Both the position numbers and the translations under genes were made by a program. Below the pieces are notes generated by a model, which made no database searches, was not told where the DNA came from, and worked only from the letters and a program-made list of their open reading frames with translations. A stretch of DNA of 64,000 nt from a virus: positions 58,592-122,591 of IMG/VR virus record IMGVR_UViG_3300025131_011243; one strand, 5' to 3'. Shown one piece after another: positions 31,952-55,582 of this stretch (position 1 is the stretch's first letter; the number at the start of each line of letters is the position of its first letter).

Positions 31952-32467
31952 TTACAAATATTTGTTCCATTCGCTAATCATCCTTGGATTGATGTCAACG
32001 AACCTGATGTCAATTAGATGGGTGTAGTTTTTAGCTATCCCCATCATTATCCTTGCTACCGAACTTGCCTCTAATCCTCCGATGCCAGTCCCCAACCCAG
32101 GAAAAGCAATACTTTCCATCTCATCTTTAATCGCTTGGTTCAACACTTTTCGCATTGCCTTGTCTACAATATCAAGACTGGTAAAGCCTCCGGGGTATTT
32201 CATCGTTACCGCATGGTACACCCTTTTTACCCCTCGTCTTTTTAGCCGATGAGGTTCAGTCGAGTAACAGTCTCCTGGTTCGAACGGCTTACCATGAACA
32301 TCTACCTTGCCTTTTGCTTCTCTGCGAAAATTCTGCCCTCCTGCTTCGGCTATCGCTCCTGCCGCACCGGCTCCCATTATACCAACCCCATTCGCTGGAC
32401 TGACTAAAGCGTCGGTCTTGGGTTTGGTAATATTTGCTTTATCGCCTTCAACGATTTTAATCGCCAT
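31952..32467 (-). CDS. Macro domain protein (ADP-ribose binding)
   Basis: A 171-aa macro domain. The start at 32467 is chosen for a GGGAGA site 6-7 nt upstream; a longer frame would run into the sigma gene. Core motifs: DALVSPANGVGIMGAGAAGAIAEAGG (phosphate/ribose loop), GDCYSTEP, and FPGLGTGIGGL. Macro domains bind or hydrolyse ADP-ribose derivatives. Beside NAD-synthesis genes across the divergent promoter, it may reverse ADP-ribosylation or clear NAD-derived signals made by host defences. That role is inference. Confidence 0.9.
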   Translation of the reverse strand: MAIKIVEGDKANITKPKTDALVSPANGVGIMGAGAAGAIAEAGGQNFRREAKGKVDVHGKPFEPGDCYSTEPHRLKRRGVKRVYHAVTMKYPGGFTSLDIVDKAMRKVLNQAIKDEMESIAFPGLGTGIGGLEASSVARIMMGIAKNYTHLIDIRFVDINPRMISEWNKYL

Positions 32468-32510
32468 GCCGGTCTCCCAATTGTTTATAGGATATCGAGA
32501 GAAAAGGCAC

Positions 32511-33356
32511 TTAATACGGCTGTTCTGCGCCTGTCTGGTCTTCAAAGATGCGCATAACATCCGTCCCGAAATAATCGGGGTTGCGCTCTATCTTATTTCG
32601 CAACCTTGAAAGGATATCTTTGTGCATCTGACTAACCCTCGACTCTGAGAGATTTACCTTATCAGCTACCTGACCCATTGTCAGGGATTCATAATAGTAA
32701 TAGTAAACGATTTTTTGTTCAACCCTAGAAAAGCTTTTTCCCATTAATTTTGAGAAAAATTCTCGCCTCATCAGACCATTTCCGGGCATTTCCGTATGAG
32801 TGTCCTTGAGCATATCGTTGTAATCCGAATGTCCCTCCCCCATACCCTCGCTCCCAGCTTCCTGAGAATGATTGTTGGAATGATCAAGACTAGCGACATA
32901 AACAGAAGAAAACTTCTTCAAACTATGATTGAGATTCTTATCCTCGATCCCCATCTTTCTAAGAACTTCGATGTCGGATACAAACTCTCCACTTTCCGTT
33001 TGCATATGCTGCTTGGTTCTTTCGAACACGGATATATTCATTCTAACCGTACGAGGAACGATATCCTCCCGCCTCAATCCATCGATCATGGCACCTTTGA
33101 TTCTAGGACGGGCATAGATTTCGAACTTGACGTTGCGATCAGGGTCGTAGCCATCGATGGCATTGTATAGACCGTCTACTCCGAATGAAGCCAGTTCAGT
33201 AGGATGGACTTTCCATCTCATTTTGGCCGCAAGTTTACCAGCTATCTTCTGGACATAGTTAAAGTAAAAGTCAACCAATTGCTGTTTGACTTTATCGTTC
33301 CTGGTCTCAAAATGCTGATCCCATAGCTGTTCAATTGAAACTTCAGTTTTCACCAT
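32511..33356 (-). CDS. FliA/WhiG-type RNA polymerase sigma factor
   Basis: A 281-aa sigma factor. Start at 33356 has a GGGAGAG site 4 nt upstream. Region 2 reads LASFGVDGLYNAIDGYDPDRNVKFEIYARPRIKGAMIDGLRRED, very like FliA/WhiG. Region 3 follows, and region 4 is an HTH (ESLTMGQVADKVNLSESRVSQMHKDILSRLR). It should redirect host RNA polymerase to phage promoters. A FliA-like promoter (GCCGATAA with upstream TAAA) sits in front of the abnormal tRNA array at 48.6 kb, and AACCGATAGT boxes lie upstream of this gene and nrdJ, making these candidate targets. Confidence 0.93.
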   Translation of the reverse strand: MVKTEVSIEQLWDQHFETRNDKVKQQLVDFYFNYVQKIAGKLAAKMRWKVHPTELASFGVDGLYNAIDGYDPDRNVKFEIYARPRIKGAMIDGLRREDIVPRTVRMNISVFERTKQHMQTESGEFVSDIEVLRKMGIEDKNLNHSLKKFSSVYVASLDHSNNHSQEAGSEGMGEGHSDYNDMLKDTHTEMPGNGLMRREFFSKLMGKSFSRVEQKIVYYYYYESLTMGQVADKVNLSESRVSQMHKDILSRLRNKIERNPDYFGTDVMRIFEDQTGAEQPY

Positions 33357-33573: not shown

Positions 33574-34776
33574 ATGGCGATCATCCAGAGCATCATTGAT
33601 GACGACCTGTATAAACTGTCGATGCAGGCGGCTATCATGGCCCTTTACCCCAGAAACAAGGTTCGGTACAGGCTGTTCCTTAGAGACGACGTAGAATTCC
33701 CGGATGGGTTCGCAGCAGCACTCAGAGAAGAAGTCAACGCCATTGCGAAACTCGCATTGACTGATGATGAGAAACATTTCCTTTCTTTGTCATGTCCGTA
33801 TTTTCCGCCGCCGTACCTTGACTTCCTTCATGGGTACAGGCACGATCCCAACGAAGTCAAGATTTCCCAGAGCGATGGAAAACTCTCGGTAGAAATCGAA
33901 GGCTACTGGTATCGAACGGTTCTTTGGGAAGTTAAGCTCATGGCTTTGATCAGCGAGTTGTATTTTGATCTCATTGGCGGCGACATCAAAATGACAAGGA
34001 ATTGCATTGACGGACCCGGCTTCTGGAAAGAACGTGCCGAAGACAAAGGTACGATCATTTACGACAACCAACTTCGTACCGCCGAGTTCGGTTCCCGCCG
34101 ACGACGCTCATTCCGATGCCAAGACATTGTTGTCGAGAATCTCAAAAAGATGTCTGGAGAATACTTGATCGGGACATCCAATGTTTATCTCGCAATGAAG
34201 CATGGGTTGAAAGCCATTGGAACGCAGGCTCATGAATGGTACATGTTCCATGCCGCTAAGTACGGCGTCCTCATGGCTAACTCAATGGGCATGGGGAAAT
34301 GGGTAGACTTCTACCACGGAAGCTTGGGCATCGCTCTGCCCGATACATTCACGACTCAAGAATTCTTGCGAGTCTTTGATGGGTTCTACGCCAAGCTGTT
34401 CGATGGGACTCGACAGGATTCCGGAGATCCATATGGATACGGCGAGACTATGGTGAAACACTACGAAGGTTTGGGTATCGATCCCATTACCAAATCTGTC
34501 GTTTTCAGCGATGGCCTGACCCTTACTGAAGCGATTCAGATCAAAAACGTTTTCCACGATCAGGTCAAAGATTCCTACGGTATCGGAACCCATTTTTCCA
34601 ATGACGTTGGCGTCGTTCCTTTGAACATGGTGATCAAAATGGTTGGCATACATACCAATGGAGTCTGGGTTCCGACTTGCAAACTCAGCGATACCCCAGG
34701 CAAGCATACTGGTGACGAAGACACGATCAAACTCTACAAAGAAGAGATCCGGAGGATGAATGGTGTCGCCACATGA
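33574..34776 (+). CDS. pncB: Nicotinate phosphoribosyltransferase
   Basis: A 400-aa enzyme converting nicotinate and PRPP to nicotinate mononucleotide, the first committed step of Preiss-Handler NAD salvage. It matches the E. coli-type PncB layout: FGSRRRR, GTQAHEW with the phosphorylated His near residue 220, LGIALPDTFTT, RQDSGDP, VVFSDGL, YGIGTHFSND, and the closing CKLSDTPGKH. Length equals that of the bacterial enzyme. An SD-like AGGAG lies upstream of 33574, and the stop overlaps nadE by 4 bp (ATGA), so the two are made in concert. Confidence 0.95.
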   Translation: MAIIQSIIDDDLYKLSMQAAIMALYPRNKVRYRLFLRDDVEFPDGFAAALREEVNAIAKLALTDDEKHFLSLSCPYFPPPYLDFLHGYRHDPNEVKISQSDGKLSVEIEGYWYRTVLWEVKLMALISELYFDLIGGDIKMTRNCIDGPGFWKERAEDKGTIIYDNQLRTAEFGSRRRRSFRCQDIVVENLKKMSGEYLIGTSNVYLAMKHGLKAIGTQAHEWYMFHAAKYGVLMANSMGMGKWVDFYHGSLGIALPDTFTTQEFLRVFDGFYAKLFDGTRQDSGDPYGYGETMVKHYEGLGIDPITKSVVFSDGLTLTEAIQIKNVFHDQVKDSYGIGTHFSNDVGVVPLNMVIKMVGIHTNGVWVPTCKLSDTPGKHTGDEDTIKLYKEEIRRMNGVAT

Positions 34777-36821
34777 AAATTGCCCTCATTCAGCTTGATG
34801 TCAAAGCTGGAGATCCTGCTCGCAACGTAAAGCGGATGATCAAGTATATCGATAAAGCCAAAGCAGGCGGCGTCGATATAGTTGCCTTCCCTGAACTTTG
34901 CATAGGCGGATATCTCGTAGGCGATATGTTCAAACACCCATCGTTCTGCCAAGACTTAATGAGCTACAACGAAGATATCCTCAAGGCATCCGAAGGTATC
35001 GGAGTCATTTGGGGAAACGTCTACATGGACGAAACCAAACGGGGAGAAGACGGCCAACCCATGCTTTTCAATGCCGCCTTCTTCGCCATGGATGGCAAGT
35101 ACGTTCCGATGGTTGGCGGATGCGACTTCCTTCCCGGCATCATGTACATCAAGACGCTTCTTCCTAATTATCGGTTCTTCGATGACAAGCGGTACTTCAC
35201 CAGTTCACTGACATACGCAAGACATGTAGGATGTAAACTTCCTTCGCTGATTAAACCTTTCTTGTTTGAAGCTCCATCTCAAAAGGGATTGGGACTCAAG
35301 CCATATCGAATCGGCTTACAGTTGTGCGAAGACCTTTGGTGCGCCGACTATCAAGAAAGAAGAGAGTCCATCAACCCTGCTGGCATATTAACCAAACAAG
35401 GCGTTGACCTTATCATCAATCTATCTGCCTCTCCTTGGACCATGGGCAAGAATGAAGCCAGGGATCGGCGGATCGCATTCATTGCTAAGGAATGCGGCGA
35501 TGAATTTGTACCCTACTACTATGTTAACGCAACTGGCGCACAGAACAACGGCAAGAACATCGTGACATTTGACGGAGGATCAACCGTCTATGGAAAAGAT
35601 GGAAAGCCACGATGCCTCGCATCTGCTAACTTTGAAGAGAGTGACCACACCTATGTTCATGGATGTTTGATCGAGAACTCAAAAAGACTCGACATCATCA
35701 ATACGCTTCCCGCTGTTCCAAGGGACAGCGACGAAACTTCGATTGAACAAAAGAAAAACGCTATCGTTCGAGGACTTCGTCACGTTCGCCATATGATGAG
35801 GTCCCCAAGCAATCCCAATGCGGTCCTCGGTATCAGCGGAGGTATCGACTCTGCCCTTGTTGCCTGCTTGCTTGTTGAAGCTTTTGGCAAAGATAAAGTC
35901 ATCGGCGTTAATATGCCGACTGTCAATAGTTCTGAAGAAACCAAAAACGTATTCAATACGTTGGTTGATAATCTGGGCATAGAACATGCGATCATTCCTA
36001 TTAACGAAGTTGTCAAACATGTAAATCTCGCCCTGCGCATTACAGTGAATTCCAGGATTACTCGTCATCAAAAAGATGGAGAGATCATTCCTCCCATTGT
36101 TCAAGAAAACATCCAAGCCAAGATCCGTTCGACAGACATCCTTTCTAATCTCACCCAATCGATTGGAGAGGACAGAAAACAACCCACGATCTTCACCTGT
36201 AACGGCAACAAGGTTGAGATCGCTTTGGGTTACGCTACTCTGTACGGAGACTGGGGTGGAGCGGTGGCCCCTATCGGAGATCTGACCAAAGCTGAAGTCT
36301 ACCAAATGGCTCGTCTGTATCAAGCTATACCTCATCAACTTCTTCCGGATGATATTTACAAATTCGGCAAGGGAAAGATTCAACCCAGCGCAGAATTACA
36401 ACCCCTGGCAAACAAACAAGTTGATCCCATTAAAGTAGGCTATCATTGTGCTATCATCAGAGAATTGACCAACTATACGATCTCAACGCCTGAGAATCTG
36501 GTTGAATGGTGGCTGGACGGAACGTTGCATGAAAAGCTGGATATCCCCATCGAGTTGATGAGGCTCCACATGGTTGATGATCCAGTCGTCTTTATTGAAG
36601 ATCTACAATGGTTAATGAAAAGAATCAATGGAGCGGTATACAAGAGAGTTCAAAGCCCTCCGATTATCATTACAAGCAAGACGGCTTATGGATATGATCG
36701 CCGGGAATCTATTCCTCTGGGAGTCCCGGTGACTCGCCGTTTTAAACAAGATCTGGTCCCAACTCTGATGGACTGGCCTCGCCGTTATCAGGAAGGTAAA
36801 GCTGAGGATCAGAATCAATAG
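34773..36821 (+). CDS. nadE: Glutamine-dependent NAD synthetase
   Basis: A 682-aa two-domain enzyme that amidates nicotinate adenine dinucleotide to NAD. The N-terminal nitrilase-like glutaminase has its triad: Glu41 (FPELCIGGY), Lys near 127 (KTLLPNY) and Cys near 185 (LQLCEDLW). The synthetase domain carries the PP-loop LGISGGIDSALVA near residues 351-362 and a long C-terminus. All catalytic residues are present. The final 80 bp overlap a convergent membrane-protein gene. The missing middle enzyme NadD is not in this window and could come from the host. Confidence 0.95.
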   Translation: MKIALIQLDVKAGDPARNVKRMIKYIDKAKAGGVDIVAFPELCIGGYLVGDMFKHPSFCQDLMSYNEDILKASEGIGVIWGNVYMDETKRGEDGQPMLFNAAFFAMDGKYVPMVGGCDFLPGIMYIKTLLPNYRFFDDKRYFTSSLTYARHVGCKLPSLIKPFLFEAPSQKGLGLKPYRIGLQLCEDLWCADYQERRESINPAGILTKQGVDLIINLSASPWTMGKNEARDRRIAFIAKECGDEFVPYYYVNATGAQNNGKNIVTFDGGSTVYGKDGKPRCLASANFEESDHTYVHGCLIENSKRLDIINTLPAVPRDSDETSIEQKKNAIVRGLRHVRHMMRSPSNPNAVLGISGGIDSALVACLLVEAFGKDKVIGVNMPTVNSSEETKNVFNTLVDNLGIEHAIIPINEVVKHVNLALRITVNSRITRHQKDGEIIPPIVQENIQAKIRSTDILSNLTQSIGEDRKQPTIFTCNGNKVEIALGYATLYGDWGGAVAPIGDLTKAEVYQMARLYQAIPHQLLPDDIYKFGKGKIQPSAELQPLANKQVDPIKVGYHCAIIRELTNYTISTPENLVEWWLDGTLHEKLDIPIELMRLHMVDDPVVFIEDLQWLMKRINGAVYKRVQSPPIIITSKTAYGYDRRESIPLGVPVTRRFKQDLVPTLMDWPRRYQEGKAEDQNQ

Positions 36822-40144: not shown

Positions 40145-40164
40145 AAATTCCCTTAGTTTTAAAG

Positions 40165-40255
40165 CGGAGACGCTGGGATTCGAACCCAGGAAGGAGCAAT
40201 TCAGCCCCTTAATTGATTAGCAGTCAATCGCCTTCAACCACTCGGCCACATCTCC
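40165..40255 (-). tRNA. tRNA-Ser(GCU)
   Basis: A 91-nt class II tRNA. Acceptor GGAGATG pairs with CGTCTCC and the discriminator is G. Anticodon stem ATTGA/TCAAT holds loop CTGCTAA, so the anticodon is GCT. Long variable arm and TTCGAAT T-loop present. First of the serine cluster. Confidence 0.95.
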
Positions 40256-40304
40256 TAATTTACCTATCGTCATGAAATGAATTTTACCAGACATGTAAAC
40301 ACAA

Positions 40305-40395
40305 AGGAAGGTAAGGGAATCGAACCCTCGGACCCCATTTCTAGGACCACTGGTTTTCCAAACCAGCACGACTAACCAACATCCGTCTACCTTCC
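40305..40395 (-). tRNA. tRNA-Ser(GGA)
   Basis: A 91-nt class II tRNA. Acceptor GGAAGGT/ACCTTCC; anticodon stem CTGGT/ACCAG with loop TTGGAAA, anticodon GGA; long variable arm; T-loop TTCGATT. The discriminator is T instead of the usual G of serine tRNAs, which may reduce charging by SerRS. Confidence 0.93.
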
Positions 40396-40403
40396 AAGTA
40401 GAA

Positions 40404-40497
40404 AGGAAGGTAAGGGGATCGAACCCTTGTAACCCCTTGTTCAGGGGTTAACTGGTTTTCGAAACCAGCGCAACAAACCAACATTTGCCTACCTTCC
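40404..40497 (-). tRNA. tRNA-Ser(CGA)
   Basis: A 94-nt class II tRNA nearly identical in acceptor and anticodon stems to the GGA tRNA. Loop TTCGAAA gives anticodon CGA; variable arm is longer (TTAACCCCTGAACAAGGGGTTA). The discriminator is again T. The similarity suggests tandem duplication followed by anticodon change. Confidence 0.93.
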
Positions 40498-40515
40498 AAG
40501 TTTTTCCAAACAAGA

Positions 40516-40572
40516 GGAGAGTATGGGATTCGTTACGGTTGCTTCGTTTTCCGAAGCTGTTCATAACTCTCC
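40516..40572. ncRNA. 57-nt tRNA-like hairpin RNA or tRNA remnant without D-arm
   Basis: A perfect 7-bp terminal helix (GGAGAGT/ACTCTCC) encloses a 5-bp hairpin with a 7-nt loop (GCTTC..GAAGC) and a sequence resembling half of a T-arm (CGAATCCC). There is no D-arm and no paired T-stem. Read on the plus strand the loop is GTTTTCC, with T at position 33 and TTT as anticodon; on the minus strand the loop is GGAAAAC. It lies between serine tRNAs and could be a decayed tRNA or a small structured RNA. Confidence 0.5.
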
Positions 40573-40576
40573 TAAG

Positions 40577-40663
40577 CGGAAGGGACAGGAATCGAACCTG
40601 CATCACGCTTCTAACGTGAAACCGTTTTCAAGACGGCTTAGCCCGCCAATAGCAAGCCCTTCC
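40577..40663 (-). tRNA. tRNA-Ser(UGA)
   Basis: An 87-nt class II tRNA. Acceptor GGAAGGG/CCCTTCC, discriminator G; anticodon stem GCCGT/ACGGT with loop CTTGAAA, anticodon TGA; variable arm hairpin TTCACG/CGTGAT; T-arm GCAGG TTCGATT CCTGT. With GCU, GGA and CGA this completes the set for all six serine codons. Confidence 0.94.
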
Positions 40664-40748
40664 TAAATATCTGTCGGGAATCCACGCTACTTGAGACCAT
40701 CTGCCCTTTTTTCAAAAAGCATTGTTTGTAGTAAATTTCCTTGGCCAC

Positions 40749-41075
40749 CTACTGCCCCCATCTCATTGCCAACATTCCTGCTACTACCAAACCCAAACCT
40801 GTCCATTGCCATCCGCTGAACTTGTCTCCCGCTCCCAAATAAAGCATAGTCAACGGAAAGACAAGAAAGATTATACTATCAAAAAGAAGCCCGTCAAACA
40901 ACTGCCTCTTTGAAATAATAGATATCAACACCCACCATTGACCTAAGGCTCCCCAAAGGAAAGCCGTCCATGCCCAGAGATGTCCGCCGTCCTGATTCAG
41001 CCTAAAGGTGAAGTAGTAGTAGACGGAATACCAAACAGCTATGCATGGGACCCACCATAAATAATGATACCACAT
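40749..41075 (-). CDS. Small multi-pass membrane protein
   Basis: A 108-aa, Trp-rich protein with four hydrophobic segments (VPCIAVWYSVYYYFTF; TAFLWGALGQWWVLISII; LLFDSIIFLVFPLTMLYL; WTGLGLVVAGMLAMRW). Topology and ending resemble small multidrug-resistance or DMT-type transporters, but length and sequence do not settle it. It lies alone inside the serine tRNA cluster. Function unknown. Confidence 0.6.
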   Translation of the reverse strand: MWYHYLWWVPCIAVWYSVYYYFTFRLNQDGGHLWAWTAFLWGALGQWWVLISIISKRQLFDGLLFDSIIFLVFPLTMLYLGAGDKFSGWQWTGLGLVVAGMLAMRWGQ

Positions 41076-41112
41076 TTTGTTTCATCTCCGCCTCCTGTCG
41101 CTGCTTCAAAAA

Positions 41113-41156
41113 GGAAGGTAAGGGAATCAAACCCTTGGACCCCATTTCTAGGACCA
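41113..41156 (-). pseudogene. 3' fragment of tRNA-Ser(GGA)
   Basis: 44 nt identical at 42 positions to the 3' third of the tRNA-Ser(GGA) gene (40306-40349): variable arm, T-arm and acceptor strand. The T-loop is changed (TTTGATT). No D or anticodon arm precedes it. It is a partial duplication or recombination scar about 8 nt before the plus-strand A/T gap, in the same orientation as the tRNAs. Confidence 0.85.
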
Positions 41157-41176
41157 TTCGCTTCCTGTTATTTAAG

Positions 41177-41268
41177 CGGATAGGGAGGGATTCGAACCCT
41201 CAGATCATCAAAGACGACCCCCTGATTAGCAATCAGGTGTCCCGCACCAGTGGGAATCCAGCCTATCC
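41177..41268 (-). tRNA. tRNA-Ser(GCU), second copy
   Basis: A 92-nt class II tRNA. Acceptor GGATAGG/CCTATCC, discriminator G; anticodon stem CCTGA/TCAGG with loop TTGCTAA, anticodon GCT; variable arm hairpin GGTCGTC/GATGATC; canonical T-arm. Its sequence differs widely from the first GCU tRNA, so it is an independent acquisition. Confidence 0.93.
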
Positions 41269-48592: not shown

Positions 48593-48620
48593 TTATCGGC
48601 TTTTTCTTGAAATTCCTTTA
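48593..48620 (-). promoter_or_regulatory. FliA-type promoter for the abnormal tRNA array/Ubl/TROVE transcript
   Basis: GCCGATAA (48600-48593) is a perfect FliA -10 and TAAA (48620-48617) sits 16 nt upstream (consensus 15). It lies between the end of the 102-aa gene (48637) and the permuted tRNA-Leu. The phage encodes a FliA-like sigma factor, so this is its best candidate target in the window. Confidence 0.7.
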
Positions 48621-48636
48621 ATGAATTCCGCAAAGC

Positions 48637-48945
48637 TCAGTTTTTCTTACCTCTCGCAGCTTCAGAGGGCATCTTACCATATCTTTTATGGCTGTCAACC
48701 CCTAAATCATCGTCGTCAAAATCATCTCCGTCATCCCAAACTTCTCCGTTCTCATCTTTGTAACGCTCGTCTTTCATCCAAGTTATCACAACAGGATCTT
48801 CGCCTCGATAAAACTTTTCCTGATGCTGCCCGTCATGATCCTGGGGGAGAGGACATCGGACGGTAGCAACCCCATCGCCAAAGTCGTCTCCGATATAAAG
48901 GTGAGCATTACATTCGCCTTCAACATCTTCTGGTTTTCCAAACAT
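48637..48945 (-). CDS. Hypothetical acidic protein
   Basis: A 102-aa protein with a Cys pair (CNAHLYIGDDFGDGVATVRCPLP), His/Asp patches (HDGQHQEKF) and a run of Asp (DDGDDFDDDDLG) before a basic end. It may bind a metal. It lies between tRNA-Leu(UAA) and the FliA-type promoter. No family recognised. Confidence 0.6.
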   Translation of the reverse strand: MFGKPEDVEGECNAHLYIGDDFGDGVATVRCPLPQDHDGQHQEKFYRGEDPVVITWMKDERYKDENGEVWDDGDDFDDDDLGVDSHKRYGKMPSEAARGKKN

Positions 48946-48964
48946 TCGTTTCTCCTAAGTTAAG

Positions 48965-49046
48965 TGCGGAAGGAGGGACTTGAACCCTCAAGCCTTACGG
49001 CACTGGATTTTAAATCCAGCGTGTTTGCCAATTTCACCACTCCCGC
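48965..49046 (-). tRNA. tRNA-Leu(UAA)
   Basis: An 82-nt ordinary class II tRNA: acceptor GCGGGAG/CTTCCGC (one G-T), discriminator A, anticodon stem CTGGA/TCCAG with loop TTTAAAA (TAA), long variable arm, T-loop TTCAAGT. It shares its anticodon with the permuted tRNA-Leu 450 bp away. Confidence 0.94.
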
Positions 49047-49047
49047 T

Positions 49048-49518
49048 CTATTCATTCCAATCGCTGTCGATCATATCGTAAGGATCGAAACCCATTCTTT
49101 TCAACTTGTTCCAAAAGCGAATGTTATCTCGTTCTCTTTGTTCCTGTTTCTCCTCTTCCTTTCTAGCCCATTCTTCTCGATGCAATTTAATCTCTTCCAG
49201 CCTTGCCCTGCGACATTGGCTACACATGTTCCATAGGTATCTGCATCGCACATGAGGGTCAAGCTTCCGTCTTGCATGTTCGGTAAACTTGCTGCTATCC
49301 TTTTTGTTTGCCGTTTTCTTTACCTTGTACTGAGTCTTGCGATGCTTCTTCCAAGACCTTACGATGGTCGTTGAAACGTCGTCCCATGCGTCAGGCAACA
49401 TTCGGGGAGTCCTTTTCCCTCGAATCCTGTAACGCATTTCAGCATCTTCCATGTCCTCCAAGGACCCGTAGTAGCCACGACGTTCATTGGTCGTTGCGGG
49501 GGATCTGAAGTAACCCAT
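49048..49518 (-). CDS. Hypothetical basic protein
   Basis: A 156-aa protein rich in Arg/Lys/Glu. It has a Tyr/Arg-rich start (MGYFRSPATTNERRGYYGS), a Cys triplet (CRYLWNMCSQCRR) and a long charged helix (IKLHREEWARKEEEKQEQRERDNIRFWNKLKRMGF). It may bind nucleic acid. Its stop is 2 bp from the tRNA-Leu(UAA) 5' end. No family recognised. Confidence 0.6.
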   Translation of the reverse strand: MGYFRSPATTNERRGYYGSLEDMEDAEMRYRIRGKRTPRMLPDAWDDVSTTIVRSWKKHRKTQYKVKKTANKKDSSKFTEHARRKLDPHVRCRYLWNMCSQCRRARLEEIKLHREEWARKEEEKQEQRERDNIRFWNKLKRMGFDPYDMIDSDWNE

Positions 49519-49597
49519 TTTCGTATCTCCTATGCAAAGTTAAACACTTCACATAGGAGATACCGGCTTTGTCCTTTTCATATCTGTATCCTTTCAA

Positions 49598-49683
49598 TAC
49601 GGGCGAGAGGGGTCGAACCTCCATAGGATTTTACTCCCGCCAGATCCTAAGTCTGGTGCGTCTGCCAGTTCCGCCACGCCCGC
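49598..49683 (-). tRNA. tRNA-Leu(UAG)
   Basis: An 86-nt class II tRNA: acceptor GCGGGCG/CGCCCGT, discriminator A, anticodon stem CCAGA/TCTGG with loop CTTAGGA (TAG), long variable arm, T-loop TTCGACC. Ordinary structure; reads CUA. Confidence 0.94.
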
Positions 49684-49692
49684 TCTTTCAAA

Positions 49693-49778
49693 TACGGATA
49701 AGAGGAGTCGAACCTCCATGGGATTTTACTCCCGCTAGATTCTGAGTCTAGTGCGTCTGCCTATTCCGCCACATCCGC
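49693..49778 (-). tRNA. tRNA-Leu(CAG)
   Basis: An 86-nt class II tRNA closely similar to the neighbouring UAG tRNA: acceptor GCGGATG/TATCCGT, discriminator A, anticodon stem CTAGA/TCTAG with loop CTCAGAA (CAG). Tandem duplication with anticodon change is likely. The 5' end overlaps the HNH gene end by about 18 nt. Confidence 0.94.
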
Positions 49779-50270
49779 TCTTAAGTCATTTTTGTTCTTG
49801 TTCCTTCCTCCATATGTAGGAGTTTGACTATGACAATTTGGACATAGTAATCTAAGATTCCTTATGCGATTGTCTGTCCTGTCTCCGTTCTCGTGGTCCA
49901 AATGCATTGAAAGAGGTTCTCCATTCCACTCTGTTCCCATTCCGCATTTAGAACATTTTTCTTCCAGTTTGCCACATTCGATTAACCTTTTCTTAAGGTG
50001 GCAATTGTTGTATACGACTCCCTTTTTTAGGAGATCCCTTAACTCTCTCTTACTAGGTGGGCTCCATGTTTTATCAAGCTTTCTTCTAGATGCCTGCCCT
50101 AAAAAATGACTCGTATCTATCTTGAAGTTTTCAATCTTGCCCTTCAAGTGAGAATGATTCCCCCCTGAAGGAGCAAGCCCTATCTTCTCCAAAACCTGGC
50201 TAATGGAGAAAGAAGTAGCTACTGCCTCCTCCAGATCTTGGATAGAATACCTTTTCGACGTATGCTTCAT
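49761..50270 (-). CDS. HNH endonuclease in the tRNA-Leu cluster
   Basis: A 169-aa protein. An N-terminal helical part (IQDLEEAVATSFSISQVLEKIGLAPSGGNHSHLKGKI) resembles a DNA-binding motif of phage HNH enzymes. The core has CSKCGMG, LSMHLDHENGDRTDNRIRNLRLLCPNCHSQ (HNH with zinc cysteines), and YGGRNKNK. The stop lies inside the tRNA-Leu(CAG) gene, so the enzyme may be a mobile element targeting tRNA genes. A GGAGG site precedes the start. Confidence 0.9.
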   Translation of the reverse strand: MKHTSKRYSIQDLEEAVATSFSISQVLEKIGLAPSGGNHSHLKGKIENFKIDTSHFLGQASRRKLDKTWSPPSKRELRDLLKKGVVYNNCHLKKRLIECGKLEEKCSKCGMGTEWNGEPLSMHLDHENGDRTDNRIRNLRLLCPNCHSQTPTYGGRNKNKNDLRADVAE

Positions 50271-50364
50271 ATTGCACCTCCACTATTAGGTACAATATCT
50301 TATAGTAAACCTCCTTCACAATTTACCAATGAGGTTTGCCAGTTTCCGTCACCTGGGCTTTATT

Positions 50365-50538
50365 TTACCATGTTTGCCTCACGGATGCATCCTTTTTCTT
50401 GCCAAATTCTTTTTCTTCTGTCGAATTCAAAGGGATTCTATGATCCCGCAGGATGTCAAAGAGATTTCGTTTACCTTGCCGGTCTTCGGCTCTCTTACGG
50501 TCATAGTCGTCTCCTTCGTCGTTTGCTTGAGTTTTCAT
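50365..50538 (-). CDS. Small charged protein (57 aa)
   Basis: ATG at 50538 has an AAAGGAG site 7 nt upstream. The protein starts MKTQANDEGDDYDRKRAEDRQ and is highly charged with no hydrophobic core. It begins 18 bp after the 3' end of the Asp-like tRNA. A longer frame would extend into that tRNA and is not credible. Function unknown. Confidence 0.55.
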   Translation of the reverse strand: MKTQANDEGDDYDRKRAEDRQGKRNLFDILRDHRIPLNSTEEKEFGKKKDASVRQTW

Positions 50539-50555
50539 AGCAGTTCTCCTTTTAA

Positions 50556-50640
50556 TGCACCGGGTTGGATTCGAACCAACGTAGACTTTCGCCAACAGTT
50601 TGACAGACTGCTGCAACTCTCCAACTTTGCCGCACGCTCT
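50556..50640 (-). tRNA. tRNA-Asp(GUC)-like gene with unresolved 5' acceptor
   Basis: T-arm GTTGG TTCGAAT CCAAC, acceptor CCGGTGC and discriminator A are clear. Anticodon stem GCAGT/ACTGT holds loop CTGTCAA (GTC), and D-arm CGGC/GTTG has GG in the loop. The expected 5' strand GCACCGG is absent next to the D-arm; instead GAGAGCG is found. It may be interrupted like the tRNAs at 48 kb or decayed. I could not place the missing strand within 100 nt on either side. Confidence 0.55.
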
Positions 50641-50697
50641 CAGTTATTACAGCCTACCGGGCTCACCACCTGCCCAACTCGCCTATTAAGTTTCAAA

Positions 50698-50780
50698 TAC
50701 CCCTGACAGGAGTCGAACCTGTACGCCTTAATCGGCAGTAGGTTTTGAACCTACCGTGTCTGCCGTTCCACCACAGGGGC
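50698..50780 (-). tRNA. tRNA-Leu(CAA)
   Basis: An 83-nt class II tRNA: acceptor GCCCCTG/CAGGGGT (one G-T), discriminator A, anticodon stem GTAGG/CCTAC with loop TTCAAAA (CAA), long variable arm, T-loop TTCGACT. Confidence 0.94.
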
Positions 50781-50791
50781 TCTGTTTCAAA

Positions 50792-50875
50792 AGGCCGCTG
50801 AGGGATTCGAACCCTCGATGGCTTAACGCCAGCGGATTTGCAATCCGCTCCCTTTGTCCGCTCGGGCAAACGGCC
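50792..50875 (-). tRNA. Class II tRNA with Cys anticodon (GCA)
   Basis: An 84-nt tRNA with acceptor GGCCGTT/AGCGGCC, anticodon stem GCGGA/TCCGC and loop TTGCAAA (GCA). The discriminator is T, the identity base of tRNA-Cys. Unlike ordinary tRNA-Cys it has a long variable arm (TGGCGTTAAGCCA), and its D-arm (CCCGAGCGGACAAAGGG) looks like that of tRNA-Tyr/Leu/Ser. It may derive from tRNA-Tyr by anticodon change. Confidence 0.88.
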
Positions 50876-51080: not shown

Positions 51081-51875
51081 CTAGTTAGTAAATCCGCCGC
51101 CAGTTGCAACCTGACTGAACGATTGCGAACCTTGGCTCGCCTGAACAGCAGACTGCGAAAAGACTTGGCATGCCTTTCTGATCGAAGAAGGATCACTTTT
51201 GGGAGTAAGAATCCATTCGTCACGGACTCCCATCTCGCCAAAAACCTGTTTGAAGTCAACCGATCCGTCGTCAACTCCCATCGCTGCGATGATATGGTTC
51301 TCGCTTTGCAGCATATCATCAACAATCGCCTTGACTTTCTTAGCCGTCATGACGTACGAATGTTGGTCTGCGCCATCGCTGATGATCAAGCTGATCGAGC
51401 GAGCGAAAACGCCGTTGTCCTTGAACTCTTGAGACTTGGCCAAGATCGTTGCGAGAAACGCAGCCGTTTGATCGTACAAGGGAGTACCTTGATTCGGATC
51501 ATAGTTGATGGTCGTCAGTTCCGAGACTGCATCGATCAGTCCGAACGGATTGATAATCTCGCCGTTGAGCAATTGAGTGAAGGCCAAGATATTATCCCGC
51601 TGCTTCGAATCCCTCAACGCTTGAATGACGAGATTATGTCCGTCCCGAACAGCTTGAGTATTGCCTTGGACAAATCGAATCGAACCACTATCGTCAGGCA
51701 TAATGCCTAAGAGGACAACTTCGCTCGCTTCGATATCGTCAACATCGACACCCATTGCTTCCTGAATCTGTTCGCCAACATCGAGGATTTCGATGGACTC
51801 CGCTCCCTCGGCAGACAGATCTCCTTGATCTTGGGCCGATTCGAAAAGCGTACCAATCGTAGCTGAAGTACTCAT
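51081..51875 (-). CDS. vWA-like protein of a TerY-P-type set
   Basis: A 264-aa protein; the ATG at 51875 follows an AAGGAG site and the preceding gene's stop at 51904. A vWA-type core reads VLLGIMPDDSGSIRF (degenerate MIDAS DDSGS), a central helix region, GTPLYDQTAAFLATIL and SLIISDGADQHSY. The C-terminus is Ser/Gln/Gly-rich. It lies with a kinase and a PP2C phosphatase in the same operon, the arrangement described for TerY-P triads. Likely a metal-dependent adaptor regulated by phosphorylation. Confidence 0.78.
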   Translation of the reverse strand: MSTSATIGTLFESAQDQGDLSAEGAESIEILDVGEQIQEAMGVDVDDIEASEVVLLGIMPDDSGSIRFVQGNTQAVRDGHNLVIQALRDSKQRDNILAFTQLLNGEIINPFGLIDAVSELTTINYDPNQGTPLYDQTAAFLATILAKSQEFKDNGVFARSISLIISDGADQHSYVMTAKKVKAIVDDMLQSENHIIAAMGVDDGSVDFKQVFGEMGVRDEWILTPKSDPSSIRKACQVFSQSAVQASQGSQSFSQVATGGGFTN

Positions 51876-51903
51876 TTTTGCAGACTCCTTTTCGATTCTT
51901 TGA

Positions 51904-52971
51904 TTAATCGATATCGACGCCGGGCCAATCAACGATGGGAGTGGTAGATTTAACGACATGCATCCCTGCGTTGACAAAACGTTCGAACGCTTCATCGGCC
52001 TGCGGAGTTGCATCGTAGATCGGAGGATCTCCCGGATACTGTCCAGGGATCACAACCGGCGACGTACAATCTTCAAGCAGATAGATCTTCTTCACCAACG
52101 ACGGGTCCTGTTGATTGATCTCATCCAGCAGATCGTTGATAAACCATGCGAAGCAGTGACTCTTGGCTTCTCCCAACCCGATGATGATATCGTGGTCGAG
52201 AATAAGCTTGAGGAATCCAACCTTCTTCTGGGCGATGGATGTCCCATCCTGATCAGCCAAAACATCAGGCTGAATCGGAGAGTAATTCTCCGTCAGCGGA
52301 TTCCCGCCCTTGATCTGAGTCTTGCGTTCATTGTGTCGGGCGACGGTATGGAAGAAGATCGCTTCATGGAGCAGGGGAATCAACGCATGTTCCAACCCGC
52401 CGAGAATGGCATGATAGGGCCATGGCGTCAATGCATATCGACGGTAAGCCGATGATCCCGTATTGAGGGTTTTCGAGTAATGCCTCAGATACGTTTCGAG
52501 ATACATATAGTTGCCGCCCTTGATGGTATGGGCAACGGCTGGATTGACTTTCCATTTGCCGCTTTGAATGTCAGCGTCCTCGATGGGAAGTCCCGGCGTA
52601 GGATGGTTGCCGTCATCATCAACGAGAAAGATTTGATGGAAGATCTGGATGACAGTATGCGTATCCATCGTCGGAGCAATGGATGTAATCAGGTGCATGT
52701 TTTCATAGATGAACTTACATGCTCTGACGCAGTCGTCATACGCACCGGCAACCGGAAGACCGCCCTGAGGATGGGCGAAGGTCAACTGAACGTCAATAGG
52801 AATGACGCAGATTTTGGTTTTGTCGATAGCGGCAGACTTGATGCCATGTTGTTTGGCCCAATCTTCCGCTTGCGGAGCCAGGTTTTCGTAGTCAACGAAC
52901 CAGAGATCGCCAACTCGACTTTCATCGAAATGGGCGGGAATCGGGAGCGTTGAAGCGGCTACTGAAGACAT
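51904..52971 (-). CDS. Nicotinamidase/isochorismatase-superfamily cysteine hydrolase
   Basis: A 355-aa protein, longer than PncA (about 200). Catalytic triad candidates: Asp60 (VIPIDVQLTF), Lys221 (QIKGGNPLTENYS) and Cys273 (GEAKSHCFAW). Metal-site-like MDTHTVIQIFH (103-111) matches the nicotinamidase DxH..H pattern, and WPYHAILGG matches the WPxHC loop. Insertions lie between these. It would convert nicotinamide to nicotinate, the substrate of the phage PncB. Alternatively it acts on another amide, since it is embedded in the kinase/PP2C/vWA operon. Confidence 0.75.
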   Translation of the reverse strand: MSSVAASTLPIPAHFDESRVGDLWFVDYENLAPQAEDWAKQHGIKSAAIDKTKICVIPIDVQLTFAHPQGGLPVAGAYDDCVRACKFIYENMHLITSIAPTMDTHTVIQIFHQIFLVDDDGNHPTPGLPIEDADIQSGKWKVNPAVAHTIKGGNYMYLETYLRHYSKTLNTGSSAYRRYALTPWPYHAILGGLEHALIPLLHEAIFFHTVARHNERKTQIKGGNPLTENYSPIQPDVLADQDGTSIAQKKVGFLKLILDHDIIIGLGEAKSHCFAWFINDLLDEINQQDPSLVKKIYLLEDCTSPVVIPGQYPGDPPIYDATPQADEAFERFVNAGMHVVKSTTPIVDWPGVDID

Positions 52972-52983
52972 TTGCTAACCTCC

Positions 52984-54804
52984 TTAGGTAATTGTGAGAA
53001 GCCTTATGGCTTTGTTATCTACTGCGTAGATCCCTTCTTTTGCCAGGAACAGGTGGCTGCTCGAATCCACAAAAGGCTCCGTATCAGGGTAGTCCTTTGT
53101 TTCAGCGATCATACTACCATGTAATTCGATGCGTTTCAACCCCTCATCTGTCGATGAGAAGAATAATTTTCCAGCCGCCGTTTTTCCCCTGATATTCTCC
53201 AGCCAAGCGACATGCTCGTTGCTATCGTCAATACTAGCTAAAACCTCGCCTTTTTCGCTGATTACGACGCAATGAGAGACGACGTTTGCCCCCTCTTTTG
53301 ACTTATATAGGAACCAGCAAATTTCATCTGCAAAATAGCAAGTTGAGTCCAAAAGCTGACCCCGAAACGGCGGCAGCTTGACTCTATCGTTGATTCCCTT
53401 GCTTGAAGTCCTGAAAGTGAAAGCTACCGACATTTCGCCAGCCCGATAGAATCCGAAACCGAACTTTTTCCCTGCCCAGAACAAAGTTTGACCAGACAAT
53501 ACGTCACCAATTCGTTCAATTCCCTCAACTCCGGAAACAGTTACTCGCTTCGTTAAGAATCCGTTGTTCAACCAGAACAAGTCTTTGCCGTTTGAATCAA
53601 AGACAGGAAGAACACCTCTATAACTATCAACCGTCAATTGATCAACAACTTGTCCGTCTTCCAAACAAAGAGCTTTTCCGCTCTTCCCAAAGAGAGATTG
53701 CTTACCATGAATGCGATACCGAACTTGAGGGTCAAGCTTGCTCCGATGAACAACCTTGTTCTCTTCTCTTCTATAAGCTCCATCTTCATGATACAAATAC
53801 TTCAACTTACCGCTTTGAAGGGCAGCAAACAAAATTACTCCGCTCGTTTCAAACATACGATCCGCCTTTACCGAACCTTTAATGGTAACGGTCTGAACGA
53901 TTCTACCAGAAGGAGGCTTCTGATATGAGTACGGAGACTGAAGAAGGATGGCAGGGAAAGCACCACGTTTGTCCTTGACAAAAACGTCATGAAAATGACT
54001 TCTCAACGAATCGGAGAGTTCATTCATCTTTCTGGCAGGCTTGGGATACTTAACGTCCGGATGAAAAACGCTAATACGATGCAAAGGTCTGTTGCCATGA
54101 GCAACCTTATGGGAACCTTTTTTGGGAATATATACTCCATCATACGGTCGAGTATACAGCAGACATTCAAACAACATAATGTTAAATGCATACCAGTCCG
54201 AATCCTCATTGTGAGGCTTGGTCAATTCAACTCGATCCGAATGACATACCAAAGGATCAACAAAGTTAGCAGTAAACATGGGACATAAATACTTACCATA
54301 TTGCCAACTGTCTGCATCGATAAAGTAAGCATCGGTCCCAACAATAAGACAATTCATGTCGTTGTTGTCGCCAATCACAGCGACCTTATGTATACCGCTC
54401 AAGGTTTCATGTATATTTTGGAAGATCGATGCGACCTGTTCGTCGTCCGCACCAGAACTTCTGAAGCTTTTTTCCGAATACCTGAATAAAAGGTCTGCCC
54501 CTGGAATCAGCTTCATTACATATCCGACAATCTGATTCTTGCTGTTTCTAACAAGACTCTCCGGAGAAACAACCTTGGCAGGAACCTGTTTGGGAAAGGC
54601 TGCAAGTTTTGTCTGATGAGCCTTAAGGCGAGCCGTTGCTGCTGACTGTTCGTGAGGTAAACCGGCATAGTCTTGGTGCTTAGGCCCTTTGAAAATTTTA
54701 ACAGCCTTGCCGCCATATTCGTAGACATCAGCCTCTCCGCCTTTTCCAATGGATTTAGACGGATCGAGTCTGACTTTTTTGTTATCAATATAAACGTCAG
54801 CCAT
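52984..54804 (-). CDS. Protein kinase-like protein (TerY-P type)
   Basis: A 606-aa protein. Residues 15-280 are a kinase fold: G-loop IGKGGEADVYEYGGKAVKIF (Lys36), catalytic-loop-like IGDNNDMNCLIVG near residue 145, metal site FIDADSWQYG in place of DFG, and EDSDWYAFNIMLFECL as the F-helix. The Asp in GDNNDMN and Asn following support activity. The C-terminal half is beta-rich (repeated blade-like segments such as GKLFFSSTDEGLKRIELHG) and may be a sensor propeller. It overlaps the PP2C gene by 8 bp. Confidence 0.83.
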   Translation of the reverse strand: MADVYIDNKKVRLDPSKSIGKGGEADVYEYGGKAVKIFKGPKHQDYAGLPHEQSAATARLKAHQTKLAAFPKQVPAKVVSPESLVRNSKNQIVGYVMKLIPGADLLFRYSEKSFRSSGADDEQVASIFQNIHETLSGIHKVAVIGDNNDMNCLIVGTDAYFIDADSWQYGKYLCPMFTANFVDPLVCHSDRVELTKPHNEDSDWYAFNIMLFECLLYTRPYDGVYIPKKGSHKVAHGNRPLHRISVFHPDVKYPKPARKMNELSDSLRSHFHDVFVKDKRGAFPAILLQSPYSYQKPPSGRIVQTVTIKGSVKADRMFETSGVILFAALQSGKLKYLYHEDGAYRREENKVVHRSKLDPQVRYRIHGKQSLFGKSGKALCLEDGQVVDQLTVDSYRGVLPVFDSNGKDLFWLNNGFLTKRVTVSGVEGIERIGDVLSGQTLFWAGKKFGFGFYRAGEMSVAFTFRTSSKGINDRVKLPPFRGQLLDSTCYFADEICWFLYKSKEGANVVSHCVVISEKGEVLASIDDSNEHVAWLENIRGKTAAGKLFFSSTDEGLKRIELHGSMIAETKDYPDTEPFVDSSSHLFLAKEGIYAVDNKAIRLLTIT

Positions 54805-55582
54805 CGGTCTCCTCTTCCGGTTTGCGACGAATCACAACCAACCCTACGTCATCATGCATAAAACCAGGTTCGCCGTTGTAGTCTCTTGCGATCAGATGGA
54901 AACGACGACGAAGCATATCTTGGTTGTTGAAATATTTGTCTTCTGTCCAAATTTGAGACAAACTTCCGAACTGTTTTTGTTGACCGGGGACATTTTTGTC
55001 AGGCTCAAAGTAACTCAAGCCGTCTGTACTAATGACCAAAGACTGTAAGGCATCCGTGGGAATACAGGCTCTTTGAACGAACTGGTATTTCCCGTCCTCT
55101 TCGGGAAAGATGTGAGAATAAACCATATAAGGAGGCGCATTGCCGGGAAAAGGCCCGATTTCGGACATTTCTCCATTGACGCCAAAAAAACCATCTCCTA
55201 TGGAAAATACATAAGAGTTTCCTGGCATAACAACTGCGACAATAGTTGTACACAGAAAATTCCCATCCAACAGATGAGTCTCATCTCCTCTCATGTTTTT
55301 GACGATTGCTTTTACTGCTTTCAGCGCATTAATACGGACATCGTCCATTGCACAATCAACATTAAAATTGTAAGACAAATATAATCCGACATCTTGGGCG
55401 ACTATCCTAGAAATGATTTGAGCCCCAATTTCTGAATGATCGCTACTCCCGCATCCGTCGCAGACGACAGCGACAATCGTTGAACCGTCGTTGGTTACGC
55501 ATACGGCGTCTTGATTATTGCGGCCAGCATTGAGGTGATCTTTACCACAAACGGACGCCGAAGCGACTTGGAATTCATCCAT
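54797..55582 (-). CDS. PP2C-family protein phosphatase
   Basis: A 261-aa phosphatase. Start at 55582 is chosen for AGGA 6 nt upstream; an in-frame Met 54 bp earlier lacks a site. Motifs: GRNNQDAV, VAVVCDGCGSSDHSEIGA (metal-binding Asp-Gly), TTIVAVV, YVFSIGDGFFG, VISTDGLSYF and HDDVGLVVI. All metal-ligand Asp residues appear present. It would reverse phosphorylation by the adjacent kinase, with the vWA protein as a likely partner. The RNase P RNA terminator lies ~60 bp upstream. Confidence 0.9.
   Translation of the reverse strand: MDEFQVASASVCGKDHLNAGRNNQDAVCVTNDGSTIVAVVCDGCGSSDHSEIGAQIISRIVAQDVGLYLSYNFNVDCAMDDVRINALKAVKAIVKNMRGDETHLLDGNFLCTTIVAVVMPGNSYVFSIGDGFFGVNGEMSEIGPFPGNAPPYMVYSHIFPEEDGKYQFVQRACIPTDALQSLVISTDGLSYFEPDKNVPGQQKQFGSLSQIWTEDKYFNNQDMLRRRFHLIARDYNGEPGFMHDDVGLVVIRRKPEEETDG

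What the first reader, a model, noticed from the sequence alone, without database searches (positions are those of the whole stretch)
51081..55582. TerY-P-like kinase, PP2C, vWA set with an embedded nicotinamidase-like enzyme
Kinase, PP2C phosphatase and vWA protein form the TerY-P triad described for Ter stress systems (Anantharaman 2012). Here the hydrolase is inserted between the kinase and vWA genes and all overlap or lie close. A phosphorylation switch linked to NAD metabolism or to the neighbouring RNA system is suggested.
Basis: partly seen in the sequence, partly recalled or inferred. Interest (0 to 1): 0.72.

Follow-up and report, generated by a model that had tools for sequence, protein, structure and literature searches.

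The report
Kinase-controlled NAD salvage in huge phages
A phage carries four linked genes (a protein kinase, its opposing phosphatase, a vWA adaptor and a predicted nicotinamide-recycling enzyme) that recur together in dozens of large viruses and in some bacteria next to the rest of the NAD+ recycling pathway, suggesting that viruses run NAD+ recycling under a phosphorylation switch.

Summary
PP2C (54797-55582), kinase (52984-54804), nicotinamidase-like hydrolase (51904-52971) and vWA (start corrected, 51081-51875) form one minus-strand operon in a genuine phage contig, and the catalytic or metal-binding residues of all four are kept. The hydrolase is not a chance insertion. All four genes sit on one strand in 61 of 69 non-redundant viral loci found by the hydrolase, and in a subset of bacteria (cyanobacteria, Parcubacteria, Peribacteria, Oligoflexia). 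Two orders occur: PP2C>KIN>HYD>VWA (window, bacteria) and HYD>VWA>PP2C>KIN (most phages). The NAD reading is strongly supported. The window also encodes NAPRTase and NadE. Of 29 records of at least 150 kb with the hydrolase, 25 carry NadE and/or NAPRTase, 17 of 29 NadE genes lie within 10 kb of it (2.8 expected), and none of 50 carries NAMPT. A Parcubacteria locus carries the whole pathway, and cyanobacterial loci carry NrtR and DraG beside the set. So this is most likely a phospho-regulated nicotinamidase cassette feeding nicotinate-route NAD+ salvage. The switch itself (candidate phosphoacceptor: a conserved Ser-rich vWA tail) is inferred. No Ter or RNA-repair link was found. I found no description of it in the papers searched.

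The parts
54797..55582 (-). PP2C-family Ser/Thr phosphatase (start ATG 55582; ORF extends to TTG 55636)
   Evidence: PF13672 1.1e-19; metal aspartates D60, D148, D205, D262, D263 (numbered in the 55636 ORF) kept in 78-79 of 79 relatives, one gap; start by alignment to relatives
52984..54804 (-). Ser/Thr protein kinase, 606 aa; ATG overlaps the PP2C stop by 8 nt
   Evidence: family profile matches solved Ser/Thr kinases; K36, D146, D163 68/68, N151 67/68; 38-49% identical to the bacterial module kinases
52987..53955 (-). C-terminal domain of the kinase, about 320 aa, conserved in the family, fold unassigned; the zinc ribbon that precedes it in bacterial relatives is missing here
   Evidence: alignment A11; only the zinc-ribbon stretch of relatives matches the PDB; no structure could be predicted
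51904..52971 (-). Nicotinamidase-like amidohydrolase (PncA type), 355 aa, with long N-terminal extension; 12 nt after the kinase stop, RBS TAAGGAGGT
   Evidence: profile hit to nicotinamidases 2h0r 4.3e-12, 29iv, 2wt9, 1ilw, 3pl1; D60, D103, H105, W184, H187, K221, C273 kept in 153/153; 50-56% identical to bacterial relatives
51081..51875 (-). vWA protein with intact MIDAS and a Ser-rich C-terminal tail; start corrected to 51875 (RBS AAAGGAGT), 28 nt after the hydrolase stop
   Evidence: MIDAS residues D107, S111, T177, D213 in 83/83 relatives (numbered in the 52013 ORF); start and RBS
51084..51158 (-). Last 25 codons of the vWA gene: conserved Ser-rich tail, candidate phosphoacceptor (inferred)
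   Evidence: Ser 26% in the last 25 residues against 8% in the body, higher in 83/83 members; 1.6% of body 25-mers reach their own tail's Ser count
33574..34776 (+). Nicotinate phosphoribosyltransferase (PncB/NAPRTase) of the same phage
   Evidence: PF04095 2.1e-52, PF17767 9.8e-32
34773..36821 (+). Glutamine-dependent NAD+ synthetase (NadE), 4-nt overlap with PncB
   Evidence: PF02540 1.8e-35, CN_hydrolase 4.6e-9; phrog_36784 NAD synthetase 1.1e-53; TIGR00552 102 bits, above its cut-off 63.65
31952..32560 (-). Macro-domain protein (ADP-ribose related), near the PncB-NadE pair; association only
   Evidence: PF01661 7.7e-21

Best explanation
The four genes are a conserved cassette that adds a reversible protein-phosphorylation switch to nicotinamide salvage. 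The hydrolase turns nicotinamide (released whenever NAD+ is cleaved, for example by host NADase immune effectors or NAD+-consuming enzymes) into nicotinate. The phage's NAPRTase and NadE, with an adenylyltransferase (NadD) of the host or of an unsequenced part of the genome, rebuild NAD+ by the Preiss-Handler route. The kinase phosphorylates and the PP2C dephosphorylates a shared target, most likely the vWA protein on its conserved Ser-rich tail and possibly the hydrolase. The vWA, through its metal site, binds the hydrolase (the two are adjacent in most loci) and turns salvage on or off. Shown by sequence: the gene set, its conservation, intact active sites, and clustering with NAD+ salvage genes. 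Inferred: the nicotinamidase reaction itself, the phosphorylation target, the sign of the switch, and the signal read by the kinase's C-terminal domain.
For: Four-gene linkage: 61/69 non-redundant viral loci and 11 bacterial ones, all same-strand; kinase-first scans recover it in 67/77 viral loci, and in 9 of 10 cyanobacterial loci the kinase adjoins the hydrolase (one of these, L337, appears to be the L088 locus again). Hydrolase: all six Pnc1 catalytic and zinc residues align and are invariant or nearly so in 153 members. NAD+ link: PncB and NadE in the window; NadE in 28/50 and NAPRTase in 26/50 hydrolase records, 25/29 records of at least 150 kb (window not counted) with either, 17/29 NadE within 10 kb against 2.8 expected, 24/29 same strand; adenylyltransferase-type genes in 29/50; NAMPT in 0/50 though the model detects it in KVP40. 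Parcubacteria L164: PP2C-KIN-HYD-VWA followed by NadD-NAD kinase, Nudix, PncB, Prs and NadE. NrtR and DraG each lie beside the full set in 9/15 bacterial loci against 1/65 loci without it. Ser-rich vWA tail in 83/83.
Against: No biochemistry. NadD was not found in the 122-kb record (a fragment). The window's PncB-NadE pair is 15-19 kb away on the other strand. Several large hydrolase records (L005, L019, L048, L066) carry neither NadE nor NAPRTase. In most bacteria retrieved the hydrolase occurs without the triad (62 of 80 genome loci), and most such genomes searched lack a strong full-length match to this kinase family, so the enzyme does not need the switch. Nothing shows which protein is phosphorylated.
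Confidence: 0.7

Rival explanations
1. The hydrolase removes nicotinamide not to rebuild NAD+ but to relieve product inhibition of NAD+-consuming enzymes (sirtuin, ADP-ribosylation or NADase systems), as yeast Pnc1 does for Sir2; the triad then controls an ADP-ribose/NAD+-consuming programme.
For: DraG ADP-ribosylglycohydrolase between PP2C and kinase in cyanobacteria; macro domain in the window; NADAR, macro and Tpt1/KptA genes near some viral sets.
Against: NAPRTase and NadE, which use the product nicotinate, are the most frequent neighbours and cluster with the set; NAMPT is absent.
Confidence: 0.12
2. The set is a TerY-P-type conflict module (defence or superinfection exclusion) and the hydrolase is its effector, acting on an amide other than nicotinamide.
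For: Kinase-PP2C-vWA triads are reported in Ter and CoCoNuT systems, and TerY-P-like modules with an OB-fold kinase as stand-alone defence (PMC11090510); the hydrolase is only about 30% identical between viral and cellular groups.
Against: No TerD in 50 of 51 records; no PADLOC hit beyond weak kinase and phosphatase similarity; nicotinamidase-specific metal and catalytic residues invariant.
Confidence: 0.12
3. The set belongs to the neighbouring RNA system (Ro/TROVE-like protein, tRNA genes).
For: A TROVE-like DUF2828 gene lies next to the hydrolase in L001, L005 and L007; the window has a Ro-like vWA protein and tRNA genes nearby.
Against: Only 3 viral loci; the window's Ro-like protein finds no match in the other loci.
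Confidence: 0.03

Closest known systems
TerY-P triad (Anantharaman et al. 2012, as described in PMC11090510)
   Same: Adjacent kinase, PP2C phosphatase and vWA protein; bacterial and a few viral kinases of this set carry the zinc ribbon after the kinase domain.
   Different: Constant fourth partner is a nicotinamidase-like enzyme; window and most phage kinases lack the zinc ribbon and all have an extra C-terminal domain of about 300 aa; no Ter genes; context is NAD+ salvage.
Phage NAD+ salvage with NadV (NAMPT), NadM, NadR (PMC9503650, PMC7824862)
   Same: Phage-encoded rebuilding of NAD+ from nicotinamide, proposed to counter host NAD+ depletion.
   Different: Uses nicotinamidase, NAPRTase and NadE instead of NAMPT; NAMPT absent in 50 records; adds a kinase/phosphatase/vWA set. 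Nicotinamidase is not mentioned in PMC9503650.
NARP1 (phage Adps and Namat, PMC12774641)
   Same: Phage answer to NAD+ depletion that reuses nicotinamide.
   Different: NARP1 restores NAD+ from the products of depletion through ADP-ribose and nicotinamide; here the nicotinate route is predicted. Adps and Namat were not searched for.
PncA/Pnc1 nicotinamidases (PDB 2h0r, 1ilw, 3pl1)
   Same: Same catalytic Asp-Lys-Cys and metal Asp-His-His residues.
   Different: Longer, with extra segments; genetically tied to a kinase/PP2C/vWA set.
NrtR regulon (Nudix-type repressor of NAD+ genes)
   Same: NrtR lies divergently beside the set in cyanobacteria, so the bacterial version is probably under NrtR control.
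   Different: Phage copies use other neighbours; no phosphorylation set in the NrtR regulon was met in the papers searched.

Membership tests
TerY-P triad | Adjacent Ser/Thr kinase, PP2C and vWA genes | tested here: met
TerY-P triad | Kinase fused at its C-terminus to a zinc ribbon | tested here: not met
   Window kinase lacks the CxxC/CPxC cysteines; present in the bacterial relatives and, complete or partial, in viral L005, L007, L009, L020, L050
TerY-P triad | vWA with MIDAS metal site | tested here: met
   DxSxS, T177, D213; no TerY-specific Pfam domain was hit
TerY-P triad | Occurrence with Ter genes | tested here: not met
   TerD in 1 of 51 records, not in the window's record; reported TerY-P sets also occur outside Ter loci
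Nicotinamidase (PncA) | Catalytic Asp, Lys, Cys | tested here: met
   D60, K221, C273 align with Pnc1 D8, K122, C167; 153/153
Nicotinamidase (PncA) | Metal ligands Asp-x-His and His of WPxH | tested here: met
   D103, H105, H187 align with Pnc1 D51, H53, H94
Nicotinamidase (PncA) | Amidase activity on nicotinamide | not testable with these tools
   needs an enzyme assay
Preiss-Handler NAD+ salvage | PncA, PncB, NadD and NadE encoded together | tested here: inconclusive
   Window record has PncA-like, PncB, NadE but no NadD in 122 kb; all of NadE, NAPRTase and an adenylyltransferase-type gene in 20 of 29 large hydrolase records; complete in L164
NadV-type phage NAD+ salvage | NAMPT (NadV) | tested here: not met
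   0 of 50 related records (the window's own record was not in that search); positive control KVP40 8.1e-41
NARP1 | Adps and Namat genes | not tested
   no search made for either

The most novel reading that the evidence does not exclude
Huge phages and some bacteria share an undescribed signalling system in which a kinase with a dedicated sensor domain reads NAD+ state (or host NADase attack) and, through phosphorylation of the vWA tail and dephosphorylation by PP2C, gates a nicotinamidase: a virus-encoded, phosphorylation-controlled metabolic pathway.
Probability: 0.45. Interest if true: 0.85.

Novelty: new variant of a known kind. Interest (0 to 1): 0.7.

Why it matters
NAD+ depletion is a common way for bacteria to abort phage infection, and phages answer by rebuilding NAD+. 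Known phage answers are sets of enzymes. Here the entry enzyme of the nicotinate route travels with a complete kinase/phosphatase/vWA set in many distantly related large phages and in bacteria, with NrtR and ADP-ribosylglycohydrolase beside the bacterial copies. If right, it gives TerY-P-like triads a defined metabolic client, shows a second route of phage NAD+ salvage that occurs without NAMPT, and makes the role of vWA/PP2C/kinase sets testable with a simple enzyme assay.

Tried and rejected
Single-sequence scans of viral contigs with the hydrolase or kinase found nothing; tblastn in the phage collection gave the first four relatives and the alignment that opened the rest. Pkinase at E 0.001 finds nothing in the record, so the kinase rests on its family. 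Ter link tested and rejected. RNA-system link weighed and rejected. The control for NadE frequency is small: 14 large dCMP-deaminase records, one of which (G056) also holds a hydrolase relative; NadE in 2 of the other 13 (Fisher p 0.012); the positional test within records is the stronger one. Records are fragments, some related, and one near-identical pair (L056/L083) is in the positional set. Anantharaman 2012 is not held in the library, so its text was not checked.

Full report
What is there. The window is the last 64,000 bases of a 122,591-base IMG/VR virus record. It is a real phage: terminase large subunit (21941-23881, 6e-22), portal (7575-9848, 2e-49) and a head-maturation-protease-like protein. 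On the minus strand four genes follow each other: PP2C 54797-55582, kinase 52984-54804, hydrolase 51904-52971 and vWA 51081-51875. PP2C and kinase overlap by 8 nt, then come gaps of 12 and 28 nt. The vWA start was moved from 52013 to 51875, where a good ribosome site (AAAGGAGT) precedes an ATG and relatives begin.

Are the proteins what they seem? PP2C is clear (PF13672 1.1e-19). The kinase alone scores only 0.05 against Pkinase, but the family profile finds solved Ser/Thr kinases and the ATP lysine, catalytic Asp and metal Asp are invariant in 68 relatives. The hydrolase alone hits nothing in Pfam; its profile finds solved nicotinamidases (2h0r 4.3e-12), and the printed alignment puts D60, D103, H105, H187, K221 and C273 on yeast Pnc1 D8, D51, H53, H94, K122 and C167 (the Pnc1 roles are from general knowledge). 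All six are invariant in 153 sequences. The vWA keeps its MIDAS residues in 83 of 83, with S or T at position 109.

Is the set conserved? tblastn in GenBank phages found the hydrolase and the kinase in the same four records and no others; all four hold HYD, VWA, PP2C and KIN in line. A profile scan of IMG/VR and of bacterial genomes followed by profile searches of the loci gave 69 non-redundant viral loci, 61 with all four genes, and 66 bacterial ones, 11 with all four. All 72 four-gene loci are same-strand. Orders: HYD>VWA>PP2C>KIN in 56 viral loci, PP2C>KIN>HYD>VWA in 4 viral and 11 bacterial loci, one other. The window has the second order. Searching from the kinase gave the same answer: 67 of 77 viral loci with all four, most others apparently cut by the flank; in 292 cyanobacterial genomes 11 have the kinase, and of the 10 loci read (one apparently the same as L088) nine have the hydrolase beside it. 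So the hydrolase is a constant partner, not an insertion. In a hydrolase tree the window falls in a group (SH-aLRT 100) whose other 29 members are all cellular.

What does it go with? Clustering neighbours of the 72 loci brought up NadE, NAPRTase, Nudix, NadD/NadM-type, NADAR, macro, Tpt1 and DraG genes. The window's phage encodes NAPRTase (33574-34776) and NadE (34773-36821) as an overlapping pair. Over 50 hydrolase records NadE is in 28 and NAPRTase in 26. Counting the window too, 17 of 29 NadE genes lie within 10 kb of the hydrolase (2.8 expected if placed at random) and 14 of 27 NAPRTase genes (2.5 expected); 24 and 25 are on its strand. Of 29 records of at least 150 kb, window not included, 25 have one or both, and 20 have NadE, NAPRTase and an adenylyltransferase-type gene. 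In 13 control phage records without the hydrolase, NadE is in 2. NAMPT, reported in 33% of jumbo phages (PMC9503650), is in none of the 50, while the same model finds it in KVP40 and in one control. Parcubacteria locus L164 reads PP2C, KIN, HYD, VWA, NadD-NAD kinase, Nudix, PncB, deoxyribosyltransferase-like, Prs, NadE. In cyanobacteria NrtR (PF21906 2e-28) is divergent beside PP2C and DraG lies between PP2C and KIN: each in 9 of 15 genome loci with the set and 1 of 65 without, confirmed in newly fetched loci.

How it may work. The hydrolase makes nicotinate for the phage's own NAPRTase and NadE. The kinase and PP2C form a reversible switch. The vWA protein ends in a Ser-rich tail (consensus near SKSISSQSQALGTGGPSQSLTF in phages), 26% Ser against 8% in the body, richer in all 83 members; it is the likeliest phosphoacceptor, and the vWA gene is usually next to the hydrolase (median gap 38.5 nt). 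These last steps are inference.

TerY-P or not. The triad composition and, in bacteria, the kinase-zinc ribbon architecture match the description of TerY-P in PMC11090510. The window's kinase has lost the ribbon, Ter genes are absent, and a C-terminal domain of about 300 aa is added whose fold could not be assigned (structure tool unavailable). It works like a TerY-P relative; it is not filed as a member.

Novelty. In the papers searched no text was seen that joins a nicotinamidase with such a triad, and the survey of viral NAD+ systems (PMC9503650) does not mention nicotinamidase. Absence from this open-licence library is not proof of novelty.

Noticed in passing
window 40164-41268, 47777-50875: Eleven tRNA genes, of which five are Ser and five Leu (plus one Cys): almost only the long-variable-arm tRNAs.
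   Followed up: no
window 45897-47441 (-): Ro60/TROVE-like protein with a C-terminal vWA domain by eye, without any Pfam hit, beside the tRNA cluster.
   Followed up: partly
window 43835-44901 (-): ThiF/E1-like enzyme next to a JAB-type peptidase, a possible ubiquitin-like conjugation pair.
   Followed up: no
window 26637-30449 and 141-7061 (-): Intein with LAGLIDADG domain in the ribonucleotide reductase large subunit and in a 2306-aa head-maturation-protease-like protein.
   Followed up: no
window 7575-9848 (-): Portal protein with a DUF559 endonuclease-like segment near its C-terminus (residues 630-696).
   Followed up: no
L164 7513-8913: Fusion of a nicotinate-nucleotide adenylyltransferase with an NAD kinase domain in a Parcubacteria genome.
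   Followed up: partly
IMG/VR record of L209 (G056), 213872-214789: Hydrolase relative with one in-frame TAA: a recoded stop, an error or a decayed gene.
   Followed up: no
L085-L164 (about 62 loci): A long nicotinamidase family of about 345 aa without the triad is widespread in cyanobacteria and deltaproteobacteria.
   Followed up: partly
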